Shown: one piece after another, positions 449 to 40,687 of the stretch
How the letters are laid out: each line of letters begins with the position of its first letter
How positions within the stretch are numbered: position 1 is the first letter of the stretch
Position numbers and translations under genes: made by a program
Notes under the pieces: generated by a model
The model's input: only the letters and a program-made list of their open reading frames with translations
Database searches by the model: none
What the model was told of the DNA's origin: nothing
Origin: Bacteroidaceae bacterium
Lineage (GTDB): Bacteria; Bacteroidota; Bacteroidia; Bacteroidales; Bacteroidaceae
Assembly: GCA_017965425.1 (NCBI GenBank)
Contig: JAGCPY010000044.1
Span: 1 to 42,089, forward strand
Direction of reading: 5' to 3'
DNA length: 42,089 bases

Positions 449-456
449 CAAAGTTA
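449..456 (-). promoter_or_regulatory. Bacteroidetes -7 promoter motif for the GH3 gene
   Basis: On the minus strand the sequence is TAACTTTG followed by C, matching the TAnnTTTG -7 box of the Bacteroidetes primary sigma factor. It is 31 bp upstream of the ATG at 417. I see no clear -33 TTTG at the usual distance. Confidence 0.65.
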
Positions 457-538: not shown

Positions 539-648
539 CGTATATCCATACATGGAAACTCGTATATACGAAAACCGAAACTCGTATATACGTTCGCGGC
601 AAAACGTCTATACATTCACGGCAGAACGTATAGACTTTCCTGCAAGAA
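539..648. repeat. Array A of 22-bp units with palindromic core CGTATATACG
   Basis: Cores start at 539 (CGTATATCCA), 561 (CGTATATACG), 583 (CGTATATACG), 605 (CGTCTATACA) and 627 (CGTATAGACT): five positions exactly 22 bp apart. The 12-bp stretches between cores are less conserved but A-rich on the 3' side. Units 2 and 3 carry the perfect 10-bp palindrome. Units 4 and 5 contain GTCTATAC and GTATAGAC, reverse complements of each other. The array fills most of the 366-bp gap (418-783) between the divergent GH3 and GH2 genes, upstream of both promoters. The same 22-bp period recurs at 24913 and 39983. Function unknown; 22 bp is about two helical turns, so repeated protein binding on one DNA face is one reading. 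Confidence 0.85.
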
Positions 649-705: not shown

Positions 706-5340
<4,635 letters not shown>

Positions 5341-8711: not shown

Positions 8712-8751
8712 TTCTCTCAATTCTTCCGCCGTGAACATCTACACGGTTTAA

Positions 8752-8795
8752 CTGGAACGTGTACACCTTCATCCAGCAAGGTGTACACGTTCCAG
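8752..8795. terminator. Perfect 18-bp stem-loop downstream of the GH43 gene
   Basis: CTGGAACGTGTACACCTT at 8752-8769 is the exact reverse complement of 8778-8795, with an 8-nt loop. It starts 40 bp after the GH43 stop codon. There is no T-run after it, so it may be a processing or bidirectional end signal, or a small repeat, rather than a classical intrinsic terminator. Confidence 0.6.
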
Positions 8796-8853: not shown

Positions 8854-9087
8854 CCCTCAATCCCTCACCTTTTGTGTCATTGAATTGTTATACAATGATT
8901 TACGGGTGAGGGATTGGTGAGGAATAGGTGAGGGATGGTGAGGGATATCTCGCTGAAAAGCACATAAAGCTCAGAAAACGAGGGAAATAACTAAATCCCT
9001 CACCATCCCTCACCTATCCCTCACCAATCTCTCACCTGCAAACGACTTTCTTTCAACAGATTATCGCAAAAGGTGAGGGATTGAGGG
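8854..9087. repeat. Nested inverted repeat made of GGTGAGGGAT units
   Basis: Inner arms at 8905-8946 and 8995-9036 are 42 bp each and are reverse complements with two mismatches, separated by 48 bp. Each arm is itself four tandem copies of GGTGAGGGAT(T/A) with 10-11 bp spacing. Outside them, 8854-8873 and 9068-9087 form a perfect 20-bp pair using the same GGTGAGGGA word. The element sits between the convergent genes ending at 8711 and 9154 and accounts for most of this 442-bp gap; the rest (9088-9153) holds nothing I recognise. There is no open frame of interest and no evident transposase. Confidence 0.85.
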
Positions 9088-24145: not shown

Positions 24146-24637
24146 TTACCCTTCATCGTCAGGCGTCTGCTCCTCCTCGCCGTCGCCGTAGATCTCGTTC
24201 ATCTTCGCCTTCTCTTCCTTGCGTGGGAGGACACGCTGGAACTTCACGTCCTTGCGCATGTCGTCGAAGAATGCCGACATGGAGTAGATGGCGCGGTAGT
24301 CGGTGATGTTGTCCGCCGTGAAGCTTTCGAAGGACGTGGAGCCCACCTGACGGATGCTGGGCTCGAAGCTGCCCAGGTCGCCCAGATCCACCTTGAAGCC
24401 TTGGATGAGATACTCGCGGGTGCAGTCAACGATGGCCGTGAGCACACCCACCACCACGTCGCGCCCGTAAGGCGAACCGTGCTCCTTGATGTGCTTCGCC
24501 AGCTGAGCCAGCGTCACCGTGTCCGTCAGCTGCACGTTGGCATACACCTTTGCAGGGTCGTCCTCGCTCATCGGGTTCTTGCGGAAGCCGAGGCTGTAGC
24601 GCACTTTCTGAATGCTTTCATCTTTTGCCATATTCAT
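24146..24637 (-). CDS. HU-family DNA-binding protein (Bacteroidetes HU-like type)
   Basis: A 163-residue cytoplasmic nucleoid-type protein. The central part (VQLTDTVTLAQLAKHIKEHGSPYGRDVVVGVLTAIVDCTREYLIQGFKVDLGDLGSFEPSIR) has the HU/IHF order: helical dimer region, G-D-L-G-S-F beta-arm start, but the arm is followed by a longer C-terminal tail that is acidic (GDGEEEQTPDDEG). This type, longer than classic 90-residue HU, is common in Bacteroidetes, often near primase/helicase pairs like those at 27271-29753. The start could be ATG 24637 or the third codon (Met3). A strong promoter (TTTG, 20 bp, TATCTTTG) and an intrinsic terminator make it a single-gene unit. Confidence 0.82.
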   Translation of the reverse strand: MNMAKDESIQKVRYSLGFRKNPMSEDDPAKVYANVQLTDTVTLAQLAKHIKEHGSPYGRDVVVGVLTAIVDCTREYLIQGFKVDLGDLGSFEPSIRQVGSTSFESFTADNITDYRAIYSMSAFFDDMRKDVKFQRVLPRKEEKAKMNEIYGDGEEEQTPDDEG

Positions 24638-24912: not shown

Positions 24913-24978
24913 CGTTTATACGAAAAGGCACACACGTATATTCGTGTAGGGGAATACGTATATACGTGTAAGGGAGAT
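24913..24978. repeat. Array B of 22-bp units with palindromic core CGTATATACG
   Basis: Cores at 24913 (CGTTTATACG), 24935 (CGTATATTCG) and 24957 (CGTATATACG) are exactly 22 bp apart, as in arrays A and C. The bases after the core (AAAAGG in unit 1, GTGTA-AGGG type in units 2 and 3) are partly shared. The array lies between the divergent HU-like and ImmA/IrrE genes. Confidence 0.82.
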
Positions 24979-25443: not shown

Positions 25444-27126
25444 ATGTATATTCATTTTAAAGAGCTTGAACAAGGTCTGAGGGAATATGTTGCCAATGCG
25501 TCTGCCTTTGACGCGTGGGCGTGGGCTATTGTGGAACGCATCAAACCTGCTATGGATAAATGGGGGAAAGAGTATGGCAGCGGTGGCCGTGCCCTCTGGG
25601 ATGTGGTGCGCGTGGTCTCATGGCGACGCGGTGTCATCGTGAAGAATCTTTCGAGGAAAAAGTTTTCCGAGCTGGTTTGCACGGTGTGTCCAGAGTTGGG
25701 AGTTGCCAAGGCACTGAATGCCAGCCTGAAGAATTCGGAAGTCTCGAAGAAGCATATCCAGAACTATGATCAGCTATCAGAAACCGTATGGCTGAAGAAA
25801 TATGGTACGCGCGTGGAGTCTCTTTTCGAGGAGGCCGAAAACGAAGTAGGGAATGCTACGATCTGTCAGAAGACCCATGAGGACTACCTCGGCGACATTC
25901 TGCTTGCCCGACTGGGTGAAGGCAACACGCTGAACTGCTTGAGGCGGAGGCAAATCTATACGGTTGCCGGTGTGAGCGAACAGAGCGTGCAGCCTGCGTG
26001 GTCTATCGAGACGTACCTGAACGCCGCAGATAGGGAACAGGGACGATTCTCGCAGGTGATGGCCTTCGAGTGGGTCGATGAACATGTCACCGAGGAAACG
26101 TTAGCCATGCTGTTTTTGCGCTACAGCCGGTTCCTCTGCAAGCTCGTCGTTGTCAGCATACATGGTTTCTCGACCGGTAGCATCGCTGCCGCCACAAACA
26201 ATCATATCGGGCTGAGCCGCATGAACCCCGATGCTCCTTTCGAGGAGGCTCTCGAGGTGGTGGTGAGGCGTACTATCAACAACAGAGAGACGGAAAATCG
26301 CCTGAAGGAAGCCCTCACGGGCGGATGCATGAGCGGCAGGATGATTGTCTGTGACGGCGGGAAACTGACCACTTTGGCCGACATGATGCACTACTGCGGC
26401 ATCGCCGTGAACCAGAGATATGTGTGGACAGTACCCTATTACCAGAAGGAGCAGATAGAGGTGATGGCCGAGGATGTCAGGTCGCACATTCCCAACAGCC
26501 ACATCAACGAACTGGCTTTGACATTAGCCAGGAAATTCGGCACGACGAGCCAAGGCTATGTGACGGCCGATGTTAACGAAATGGCGCGCAGGATGGGACT
26601 GAAGATCATGATGAGCGATATGCCGTCCGATCAGTATGCGTGTCTGGACCTCGCAGGGAAGCGTATCGTCCTGAACTTGAAGATAGCCACCATGACCGTC
26701 AACCATCATGGAACCGTCAACCACATCATCCGCTTCTCCATAGCGCATGAACTGGGGCATTTCTTCCTCCATGCTCAGGCTCTCTGCGAACATATTGAAT
26801 CGTTCACCGAGACAGATGCCTCGCTGAGCGCCACTCCACAGGGCGACAATAAGGTGAAGCGCATGGAGTGGCAGGCCAATTACTTTGCTGCGTGTCTTCT
26901 CATGCCGAAGGAGGAGGTCCGACGGCTGTTCTGTCAGCTGCTCAAGCCAGATGAAAGACAACTCCTTGAGACGAACAAAGTCATCTATGAGGAGCAGCTG
27001 GGACGCGAAAGGCTCTACGCGATTCTGCTGCGTATGTCAGGCCGCATGGAGGTTTCCATGCAGGCCATGCGCATCCGTCTGAGTGAGTTGTCGTTGGTTC
27101 CACAACTCTCGGCGGAATGTGCCTGA
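25444..27126 (+). CDS. ImmA/IrrE-type zinc metalloprotease with a large unrecognised N-terminal region
   Basis: A 560-residue protein without signal peptide or membrane span. The C-terminal part (about 350-515) is an ImmA/IrrE (M78-type) domain: SIAHELGHFFLH gives the zinc motif His435-Glu436-x-x-His439, and MEWQANYFAACLLMP supplies the third-ligand acid around Glu475. Members of the family cleave repressors to release a response, for example ImmA for ICEBs1 and IrrE/DdrO in Deinococcus. The first ~340 residues contain no domain I can name; they are rich in Lys/Arg and aromatic residues near the start (AWAIVERIKPAMDKW, VVRVVSWRRG). The usual partner, a small Xre-type repressor gene, is not next to it. 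It is a single-gene unit by promoter structure, followed by a helicase-like gene with its own promoter. Confidence 0.8.
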   Translation: MYIHFKELEQGLREYVANASAFDAWAWAIVERIKPAMDKWGKEYGSGGRALWDVVRVVSWRRGVIVKNLSRKKFSELVCTVCPELGVAKALNASLKNSEVSKKHIQNYDQLSETVWLKKYGTRVESLFEEAENEVGNATICQKTHEDYLGDILLARLGEGNTLNCLRRRQIYTVAGVSEQSVQPAWSIETYLNAADREQGRFSQVMAFEWVDEHVTEETLAMLFLRYSRFLCKLVVVSIHGFSTGSIAAATNNHIGLSRMNPDAPFEEALEVVVRRTINNRETENRLKEALTGGCMSGRMIVCDGGKLTTLADMMHYCGIAVNQRYVWTVPYYQKEQIEVMAEDVRSHIPNSHINELALTLARKFGTTSQGYVTADVNEMARRMGLKIMMSDMPSDQYACLDLAGKRIVLNLKIATMTVNHHGTVNHIIRFSIAHELGHFFLHAQALCEHIESFTETDASLSATPQGDNKVKRMEWQANYFAACLLMPKEEVRRLFCQLLKPDERQLLETNKVIYEEQLGRERLYAILLRMSGRMEVSMQAMRIRLSELSLVPQLSAECA

Positions 27127-39982: not shown

Positions 39983-40048
39983 CGTATATACGAGGTCGTG
40001 TTTTCGTATATACGCGTCTGCATTTTCGTATATACGCGTCTGGCGACT
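39983..40048. repeat. Array C of 22-bp units with palindromic core CGTATATACG
   Basis: Perfect CGTATATACG cores start at 39983, 40005 and 40027, exactly 22 bp apart. Units 2 and 3 share CGTATATACGCGTCTG, and the two core-flanking stretches before units 2 and 3 end in TTTT. Compared with array A on its minus strand the order TTTT-core-(A/C)GT(T/C)T is the same. Confidence 0.88.
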
Positions 40049-40267: not shown

Positions 40268-40687
40268 ATGTTACCAGTAATGTTTAAGAACAGTTGGTTC
40301 CCCACCGTATTCGATGATTTCTTTAACACAAATATGACCACACAGCGCACGGCACCTGCCGTCAACGTTAAGGTCGATGAGAACGCCTACACGATGGAGG
40401 TCGCAGCTCCTGGATTGAAGAAGGAATACTGCCGTATTAGCATCAACGACGAAGGCAACCTCAACGTCGCCATTGAGAACAAGTTCGAGCACAAAGAAGA
40501 GGACAAGAAAGAGCACTATCTGCGTCGCGAGTTCTCTTACACCAACTATCAGCAGGCTTACACGTTGCCGGAAGACGTTGACAAGAACGGCATTTCGGCC
40601 AAGGTCGAAGACGGTGTCTTGACCATCGTGATGCCGAAGGTGAAGAAAGAGGAAGTCAAGGTCTCACGTCACATTGACATCGCTTGA
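40268..40687 (+). CDS. Small heat-shock protein, Hsp20/alpha-crystallin family
   Basis: A 139-residue cytoplasmic chaperone that holds unfolding proteins until ATP-dependent chaperones act. The alpha-crystallin domain covers about residues 28-135: PAVNVKVDENAYTMEVAAPGLKK, the LRREFSYTNYQQAYTLPEDVD region and the AKVEDGVLTIVMPK signature (A-x-x-x-x-G-V-L-x-[IV]). The N-terminal arm has WFPTVFDDFF and the C-terminus ends VKVSRHIDIA. An AGGAG stretch just upstream of the ATG is unusual for Bacteroidetes, which rarely use Shine-Dalgarno sequences. It is a single-gene unit between a sigma-54 promoter and an intrinsic terminator, which implies induction by an activator rather than constant expression. 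Confidence 0.93.
   Translation: MLPVMFKNSWFPTVFDDFFNTNMTTQRTAPAVNVKVDENAYTMEVAAPGLKKEYCRISINDEGNLNVAIENKFEHKEEDKKEHYLRREFSYTNYQQAYTLPEDVDKNGISAKVEDGVLTIVMPKVKKEEVKVSRHIDIA

What the first reader, a model, noticed from the sequence alone, without database searches (positions are those of the whole stretch)
539..648. A 22-bp-period palindromic repeat family (core CGTATATACG), array A
Five core positions (539, 561, 583, 605, 627) are exactly 22 bp apart, and the same core and the same period recur at 24913/24935/24957 and 39983/40005/40027, far away in other intergenic regions. The spacers between cores vary while the core and the period stay fixed, which is unlike a simple slipped repeat. 22 bp is close to two helical turns, so palindromic cores would face the same side of the DNA, as for a row of bound dimers. 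All three arrays lie upstream of genes. This is seen in the sequence; a role in regulation or nucleoid structure is inference. Tandem-repeat-bearing MITEs (BrickBuilt, with repeats of about 23 bp) are known in Porphyromonas gingivalis, so a related mobile-repeat explanation is also possible.
Basis: partly seen in the sequence, partly recalled or inferred. Interest (0 to 1): 0.85.

Follow-up and report, generated by a model that had tools for sequence, protein, structure and literature searches.

The report
Phased palindrome arrays in Bacteroidales intergenic DNA
Short palindromes repeated exactly every 22 base pairs, two turns of the DNA helix, sit between genes of this bacterium, and relatives carry similar arrays built from other palindromes, which suggests rows of an unknown paired DNA-binding protein.

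Summary
All 11 cores are in place at 22 bp; 6 are exact CGTATATACG. The genome has 35 exact cores (control 2) and 11 exact pairs, all with a 12-bp gap although 10-14 was allowed (control 0).

The reading changes. (1) Arrays are not mainly promoter elements: 10 of 24 here lie between convergent genes, and 49 of 121 in other Bacteroidales, with 5 of 121 divergent. (2) They are neither RNA hairpins nor BrickBuilt: mismatched half-site pairs (20) outnumber C..G pairs (4), and in two orthologous array pairs 1 of 60 core bases changed against 19 of 60 spacer bases. (3) The period is wider than the core: in stretches not chosen for arrays, 22 bp is the commonest or joint commonest intergenic self-match period in the genus, family and order samples, and 15 of 31 such arrays are palindromic (5% expected) with other words.

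Best explanation: rows of DNA-binding dimers, one per 22 bp, placed like REP/BIME repeats at gene ends. The protein and the function are not shown. Nine literature searches found no description.

The parts
539..636 (.). Array A: five cores at 539, 561, 583, 605, 627, 22-bp period, between a gene on the - strand (1-417) and a beta-galactosidase gene on the + strand (787-5340)
24913..24966 (.). Array B: three cores at 24913, 24935, 24957, between an HU-HIG gene (24146-24637, - strand) and a gene with an IrrE-like peptidase domain (25444-27126, + strand)
39983..40036 (.). Array C: three exact cores at 39983, 40005, 40027, between two + strand genes, the second an HSP20 gene (40268-40687)
8736..8789 (.). 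Array D, not in the finding: CATCTACACG, CGTGTACACC, GGTGTACACG at 8736, 8758, 8780, same 22-bp period, GTGTACAC class
   Evidence: sequence; class counted
748..755 (+). TATATTTG, fits the Bacteroidota -7 promoter box TAnnTTTG (motif recalled); array A ends about 110 bp before it
   Evidence: read; motif from memory, not tested
449..456 (-). TAACTTTG on the - strand, same recalled -7 box, for the divergent gene left of array A
   Evidence: read; motif from memory, not tested

Best explanation
Each 22-bp unit is a binding site for a dimeric DNA-binding protein that reads two half-sites (here CGTAT, CGTCT and the like) around a dyad. Neighbouring dimers sit two helical turns apart on nearly the same face and probably cooperate. 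Arrays grow and shrink by tandem duplication; afterwards spacers drift and cores are kept. They lie mostly at gene ends and between convergent genes, so the likely job is architectural (chromosome folding, handling of supercoils, or blocking read-through), as proposed for REP/BIME repeats, and not operator control of single promoters. Shown: spacing, dyad symmetry, mixing of half-sites, core conservation in two orthologous pairs, placement, gain or loss between species. Inferred: that a protein binds, cooperativity, the architectural role. Not known: which protein.
For: All 11 exact pairs have a 12-bp gap although 10-14 was allowed. The 86-unit profile is dyad-symmetric, with a weaker G|C dyad midway. 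Of 116 wider-core units, A-type and C-type half-sites mix as C..T 11 and A..G 9, against C..G 4, which base pairing would not favour. In two orthologous array pairs 1 of 60 core against 19 of 60 spacer positions changed, p 8.6e-6. Convergent placement is enriched: odds ratio 6.8 (p 0.0018) in the own genome, 8.9 (p 3.4e-14) in other Bacteroidales. Arrays of other palindromes at the same period occur in relatives.
Against: No binding protein was found: HU-HIG genes show no association and no neighbour family recurs. The inner pair of the core does covary (z 8.05) and one flank pair too (z 2.87), because GTAT and GTGT half-sites seldom mix; in other Bacteroidales several pairs reach z 2 to 2.9. 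In arrays found without a core the convergent excess is weaker (10 of 37 placed, background 62 of 510) and divergent gaps are not avoided (8 of 37, background 122 of 510). Divergent depletion is not significant in the own genome (p 0.41). So many different words are hard to explain by one protein.
Confidence: 0.45

Rival explanations
1. Selfish or neutral minisatellite: arrays ride in short mobile elements or arise by slippage, have no role for the host, and survive best at gene ends where they do least harm.
For: In Phocaeicola massiliensis and P. faecalis the arrays end a mosaic of about 400 bp with tens of matches per genome. At the mutY gap 2 of 9 loci have an array and 7 do not. Two own-genome arrays lie inside genes. 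Spacers are more alike within arrays (0.50) than between (0.38), so units duplicate.
Against: Cores are kept while spacers change. Own-genome flanks share little: 5 match rows from 3 flank pairs among 52 flanks. The same period with unrelated words is not expected of one element.
Confidence: 0.25
2. REP-type or RNA-hairpin elements: each palindrome acts as a hairpin in RNA or single-stranded DNA (terminator, mRNA stabiliser, or target of a REP-associated tyrosine transposase).
For: Placement at convergent and tandem gene ends is that of REPs (PMC3733652, passages). Several words in relatives could be 5-6 bp stems with 4-nt loops (by eye). Terminator-like hairpins are commoner in array-bearing gaps. 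The inner core pair covaries.
Against: C..T and A..G half-site pairs (20) outnumber C..G (4). Flanks do not covary in 86 own units, all |z| below 2. The conserved core would give only a 3-bp stem. No Y1 transposase match in G110, G334, G316 and G062, which have arrays; no core within the 4 Y1 loci checked. These are incomplete genomes.
Confidence: 0.12
3. Operator arrays of a promoter-acting regulator.
For: The window's three arrays lie upstream of genes, two between divergent genes.
Against: 49 of 99 arrays placed between two genes in other Bacteroidales are convergent and 5 of 99 divergent. Neighbouring genes show no theme by eye, and the largest neighbour cluster is 9 of 539 proteins.
Confidence: 0.1
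4. An enzyme builds the arrays: a dimeric nuclease or nickase recognises the palindrome, cuts with a stagger of about 22 bp, and filling-in duplicates the unit.
For: It would explain one period with many words, and alike spacers within arrays.
Against: No such enzyme was found or is known to me. Arrays at 21 bp also occur in relatives (12 unique, against 31 at 22 bp), which fits helical phasing better than one fixed stagger.
Confidence: 0.08

Closest known systems
REP / BIME elements (repetitive extragenic palindromes; bacterial interspersed mosaic elements)
   Same: Extragenic palindromic repeats, many per genome, at convergent and tandem gene ends, some inside genes, sometimes in mosaics (PMC3733652 and PMC1525189, passages).
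   Different: REPs are 20-40 bp palindromes able to form hairpins, many with a GTAG or CGTC tag and a RAYT transposase; here the core is 10 bp, the period is fixed at 22 bp, and no hairpin pairing or RAYT link was found.
BrickBuilt MITE / minisatellite of Porphyromonas gingivalis
   Same: Intergenic tandem repeat with a unit of about two helical turns in a member of the same order (passages).
   Different: 23-nt unit without spacers, another consensus (AGAYCATARTATCCTCTCRTRTG), leader and tail with terminal inverted repeats; the arrays here have none of these in the own genome.
Iteron and centromere arrays of plasmids (Rep, ParR and similar; recalled)
   Same: Short sites repeated at about 11 or 20-22 bp so that bound proteins share one face.
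   Different: Those are few per replicon, beside rep or par genes; here there are tens of arrays over the chromosome and no recurrent neighbour.
TAACTGA direct repeats of Beggiatoaceae and some Bacteroidetes
   Same: Intergenic short-repeat arrays without known mechanism (PMC4679880, passages).
   Different: A 7-nt direct repeat, mostly just upstream of start codons; not palindromic.

Membership tests
REP / BIME | extragenic, mainly between convergent or tandem genes | tested here: met
   own 16 of 24 and others 94 of 121 convergent or tandem; one search shows a weaker trend for arrays found without a core
REP / BIME | palindrome able to form a hairpin, arms kept complementary | tested here: not met
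   C..T and A..G pairs 20, C..G 4; own flanks |z| below 2. Against this: inner pair z 8.05
REP / BIME | association with a RAYT (Y1) transposase gene | tested here: not met
   5 of 12 genomes without any match, 4 of them with arrays; no core in the 4 Y1 loci checked
BrickBuilt | 23-nt unit of consensus AGAYCATARTATCCTCTCRTRTG | tested here: not met
   (compared by eye)
BrickBuilt | leader and tail with terminal inverted repeats shared by copies | tested here: not met
   own genome: 5 match rows from 3 flank pairs among 52 flanks. In Phocaeicola a shared flanking element exists but its ends were not defined
cooperative operator or iteron array | sites of constant sequence at a helical multiple | tested here: met
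cooperative operator or iteron array | a protein that binds it | not testable with these tools
   no candidate survived

The most novel reading that the evidence does not exclude
Bacteroidales chromosomes share an undescribed lattice system: palindromic sites repeated every two helical turns (22, sometimes 21 bp), mostly at gene ends, in which the period is kept across families while the recognised word is replaced from species to species and several words coexist in one genome. This would imply a fast-diversifying family of dimeric architectural proteins, or an enzyme that builds 22-bp palindromic arrays.
Probability: 0.3. Interest if true: 0.9.

Novelty: new variant of a known kind. Interest (0 to 1): 0.72.

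Why it matters
How Bacteroidales fold their chromosomes and keep convergent transcripts apart is, as far as I know, little studied. A kept period with changing words gives a direct handle: arrays can serve as bait for the protein, and word changes between species can be matched with changes in a DNA-binding domain. In genus stretches not chosen for arrays there were 9 lag-22 arrays in about 29 kb of intergenic DNA, so the feature is common there, yet nine full-text searches found no description of it.

Tried and rejected
HU-HIG (HU_rel) proteins as binders, because array B lies beside one and the own genome has 9 matches, 1 over the cut-off. Lag-22 arrays near 30 HU-HIG loci (three of them own) were 10 per 32.2 kb intergenic, against 3 per 19.1 kb at 29 mutY loci and 9 per 29.1 kb in random stretches: no association.

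A recurrent neighbouring gene as the cognate: 539 proteins near arrays clustered at E 1e-8, largest cluster 9; the cluster with the window's HU-HIG protein has 4 (eight places fetched twice were not removed).

Arrays in place of terminators: terminator-like hairpins are commoner, not rarer, in array-bearing gaps (convergent: own 6 of 10 against 2 of 5, others 18 of 28 against 6 of 19), but these gaps are mostly longer.

A phage origin: only 2 contigs of the viral collection have an exact pair. Plasmid and phage record collections were not searched.

A general CGTNNNNACG pair over order and phylum: 10 of 149 and 10 of 118 genomes, own included in each, mostly one or two hits, at the level of the reversed control.

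Arrays inside genes: L136 in a folylpolyglutamate synthase, L155 in a CobB/CobQ-like gene, between its two domains (one search found no solved relative). Not pursued.

A linked RNA: Rfam search of 12 sources gave tRNAs only.

Literature: nine searches listed no paper describing 22-bp palindromic arrays in Bacteroidales; the library lacks most subscription papers. Papers seen only as passages: PMC4596501, PMC5771137, PMC3733652, PMC1525189, PMC4679880.

Limits. Genes come from a small hexamer-based finder that I wrote, not from annotation. One search counted eight places twice; one search repeats it without them. One search lists L196, L220 and L222 twice; one search gives unique counts. One search left out 7 fetched loci of 3 kb or less. 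Spacing counts come from loci that were chosen for 22-bp pairs; one search is the fairer test.

Full report
OBSERVATION. Of 11 cores 6 are exact, 2 have one mismatch and 3 have two. The window holds 8 matches at up to one mismatch against 0.27 expected. It is contig C37 of a 3.73-Mb genome in 96 contigs, 95% complete. That genome has 35 exact cores (control 2), 11 exact pairs, all with a 12-bp gap although 10-14 was allowed (control 0), and 67 pairs at up to 3 mismatches (control 0). A fourth array, of GTGTACAC words, lies at 8736-8789 (by eye).

ANATOMY. Printed in 22-bp phase, arrays trail off into degenerate copies that keep the phase. Over 86 units of 26 arrays the profile is symmetric about the core, and a weaker dyad, G|C, lies midway between cores. 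Among neighbouring cores (up to 2 mismatches, within 120 bp) 60 of 70 in own-genome loci and 343 of 396 in other Bacteroidales are 22 bp apart, in loci chosen for such pairs. With the wider core GTNNNNAC and a neighbour at 22 bp, 116 own-genome units give GTATATAC 51, GTGTACAC 23, GTCTATAC 7, GTATAGAC 7. The inner pair is A..T 52, G..C 24, C..T 11, A..G 9, G..T 5, C..G 4, others 11. A and C half-sites mix, which base pairing would not favour; G half-sites mostly keep to themselves, as if there were two site classes, and for that reason the inner pair covaries strongly (z 8.05). One flank pair also covaries (z 2.87). With the narrower core, 86 own units show no covariation (all |z| below 2), while in other Bacteroidales several pairs reach z 2 to 2.9.

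PLACEMENT. With my own gene finder, 24 own-genome arrays fall 10 convergent, 6 tandem, 5 divergent, 2 inside genes, 1 at an edge; array-free gaps are 6, 26 and 19 (convergent odds ratio 6.8, p 0.0018; divergent depletion p 0.41). In 112 loci of other Bacteroidales 121 arrays fall 49 convergent, 45 tandem, 5 divergent, 2 inside, 20 edge; array-free gaps are 22 convergent, 142 tandem, 57 divergent (convergent odds ratio 8.9, p 3.4e-14; divergent 0.15, p 5.4e-6). These loci were chosen for arrays, so the background is their neighbouring gaps. Arrays found without knowledge of a core (lags 21, 22 and 44) fall 10 convergent, 19 tandem, 8 divergent, 4 edge of 41, against gaps of 62, 326 and 122: a weaker convergent excess and no avoidance of divergent gaps. 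The window's three arrays, all upstream of genes, are not typical of the core family.

EVOLUTION. Spacers are more alike within arrays (0.50) than between arrays in the same orientation (0.38; 0.46 when the better of two orientations is taken), so units duplicate in tandem. In two orthologous pairs (L067/L124, last four units aligned by position; Parabacteroides L058/L130) cores changed at 1 of 60 positions and spacers at 19 of 60 (p 8.6e-6), with 8 units in one species and 5 in the other at L067/L124. At the gap after a mutY-like gene (HhH-GPD and NUDIX domains), the 30 best of 60 matching genomes were fetched; 9 loci, own included, keep the convergent CorC-like neighbour. The own genome has this array; G341 (L196) has a 22-bp array of another palindrome, TGGAACCATCGTTCCA; 7 have none. 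Elsewhere arrays persist at what look like orthologous gaps (L126 with own L150; L091 with own L158).

REACH OF THE CORE. Exact pairs occur in 105 stretches of the species-level genome collection. By title 104 are Bacteroidales (unnamed Bacteroidales, Bacteroidaceae and Prevotellaceae MAGs, Bacteroides, Phocaeicola, Parabacteroides, Porphyromonas, Prevotella), many from a few genomes, and 1 is an Omnitrophota MAG. At up to one mismatch 8 of 301 genomes of the family have pairs. With CGTNTANACG and one mismatch 9 of 61 genomes of the genus do, with different favourite words; the reversed control also hits in some (5 in G341, against 13). The viral collection has 2 contigs.

THE PERIOD WITHOUT THE CORE. 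I took stretches of up to 20 kb from relatives, not chosen for arrays, and counted intergenic self-matches (23 of 33) at lags 9-60. Genus, 11 loci: lag 22 nine times, 44 six, 21 once, 23 none. Other genera of the family, 27 loci: 22 seven, 44 seven, 21 five, 23 none. Other families of the order, 18 loci: 22 four, 21 three, 44 two. Same class, 9 loci: 22 once, 34 twice. Same phylum, 8 loci: 22 none, 21 once. The outer samples are small. In 113 loci of genus, family and order (random stretches plus mutY and HU-HIG loci, own genome left out), 31 unique lag-22 arrays were found; 15 are more palindromic than column-permuted versions at p 0.05, where 5% is expected, as are 4 of 12 at lag 21 and 7 of 22 at lag 44. 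The words differ: TTTGACTCGAGTCAAA, CAACACGTTG, AAGACGCGCGTCTT, TTCGACCTAGGTCGAA, ACCTATATAGGT. The other 16 lag-22 arrays are not significantly palindromic.

MOBILITY. Own-genome flanks share little (5 rows from 3 flank pairs among 52 flanks). There the arrays ride in a dispersed element; here no such element was found.

MECHANISM. I commit to rows of dimers, one per 22 bp, with an architectural or barrier role at gene ends (0.45). Spacing, symmetry, mixing of half-sites and core conservation are shown; the protein, cooperativity and role are inferred. Selfish repeats (0.25) are the strongest rival. I could not name a protein: HU-HIG genes showed no association, no neighbour recurs, and Y1 transposases have no match in 5 of 12 genomes, 4 of them with arrays.

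KNOWN THINGS. Placement and mosaic habit are those of REP/BIME (PMC3733652, PMC1525189, passages), but the hairpin and RAYT features were tested and not met. BrickBuilt differs in unit, consensus and ends (PMC4596501, passages). Nine searches, listed under Tried and rejected, found no description of these arrays. I call it a new variant of a known kind, extragenic palindromic repeats that work more like a phased protein-binding array; the lattice with changing words could be more than that.

Noticed in passing
window 8855-9085: A roughly 230-bp near-palindromic dispersed element with 10/11-bp GGTGAGGGAT repeats; 93 matches in the own genome on the two strands together (roughly half as many places, not counted exactly). 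Copies lie beside arrays D, L145 and L151.
   Followed up: partly
L160-L170 (Phocaeicola massiliensis and P. faecalis): A mosaic dispersed element of about 400 bp that carries the 22-bp array at one end; its ends and any target duplication were not defined.
   Followed up: partly
L155 2982-3057 and L136 2962-3015: Arrays inside coding genes of the own genome: in a CobB/CobQ-like gene between its two domains, and in the 3' part of a folylpolyglutamate synthase gene.
   Followed up: partly
L176 1233-1387: An 11-bp direct-repeat array in G010 built of two unit types, TTGCCATCTCC and TTGCGAAGTAC, in a mixed order.
   Followed up: no
L101 300-331: The only exact pair outside Bacteroidales by title, in a Candidatus Omnitrophota MAG; chance or contamination was not tested.
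   Followed up: no
L157 3024-3200: In the own genome one array continues in the same phase with another core, CCCTTAAGAG-like, and similar spacers.
   Followed up: no
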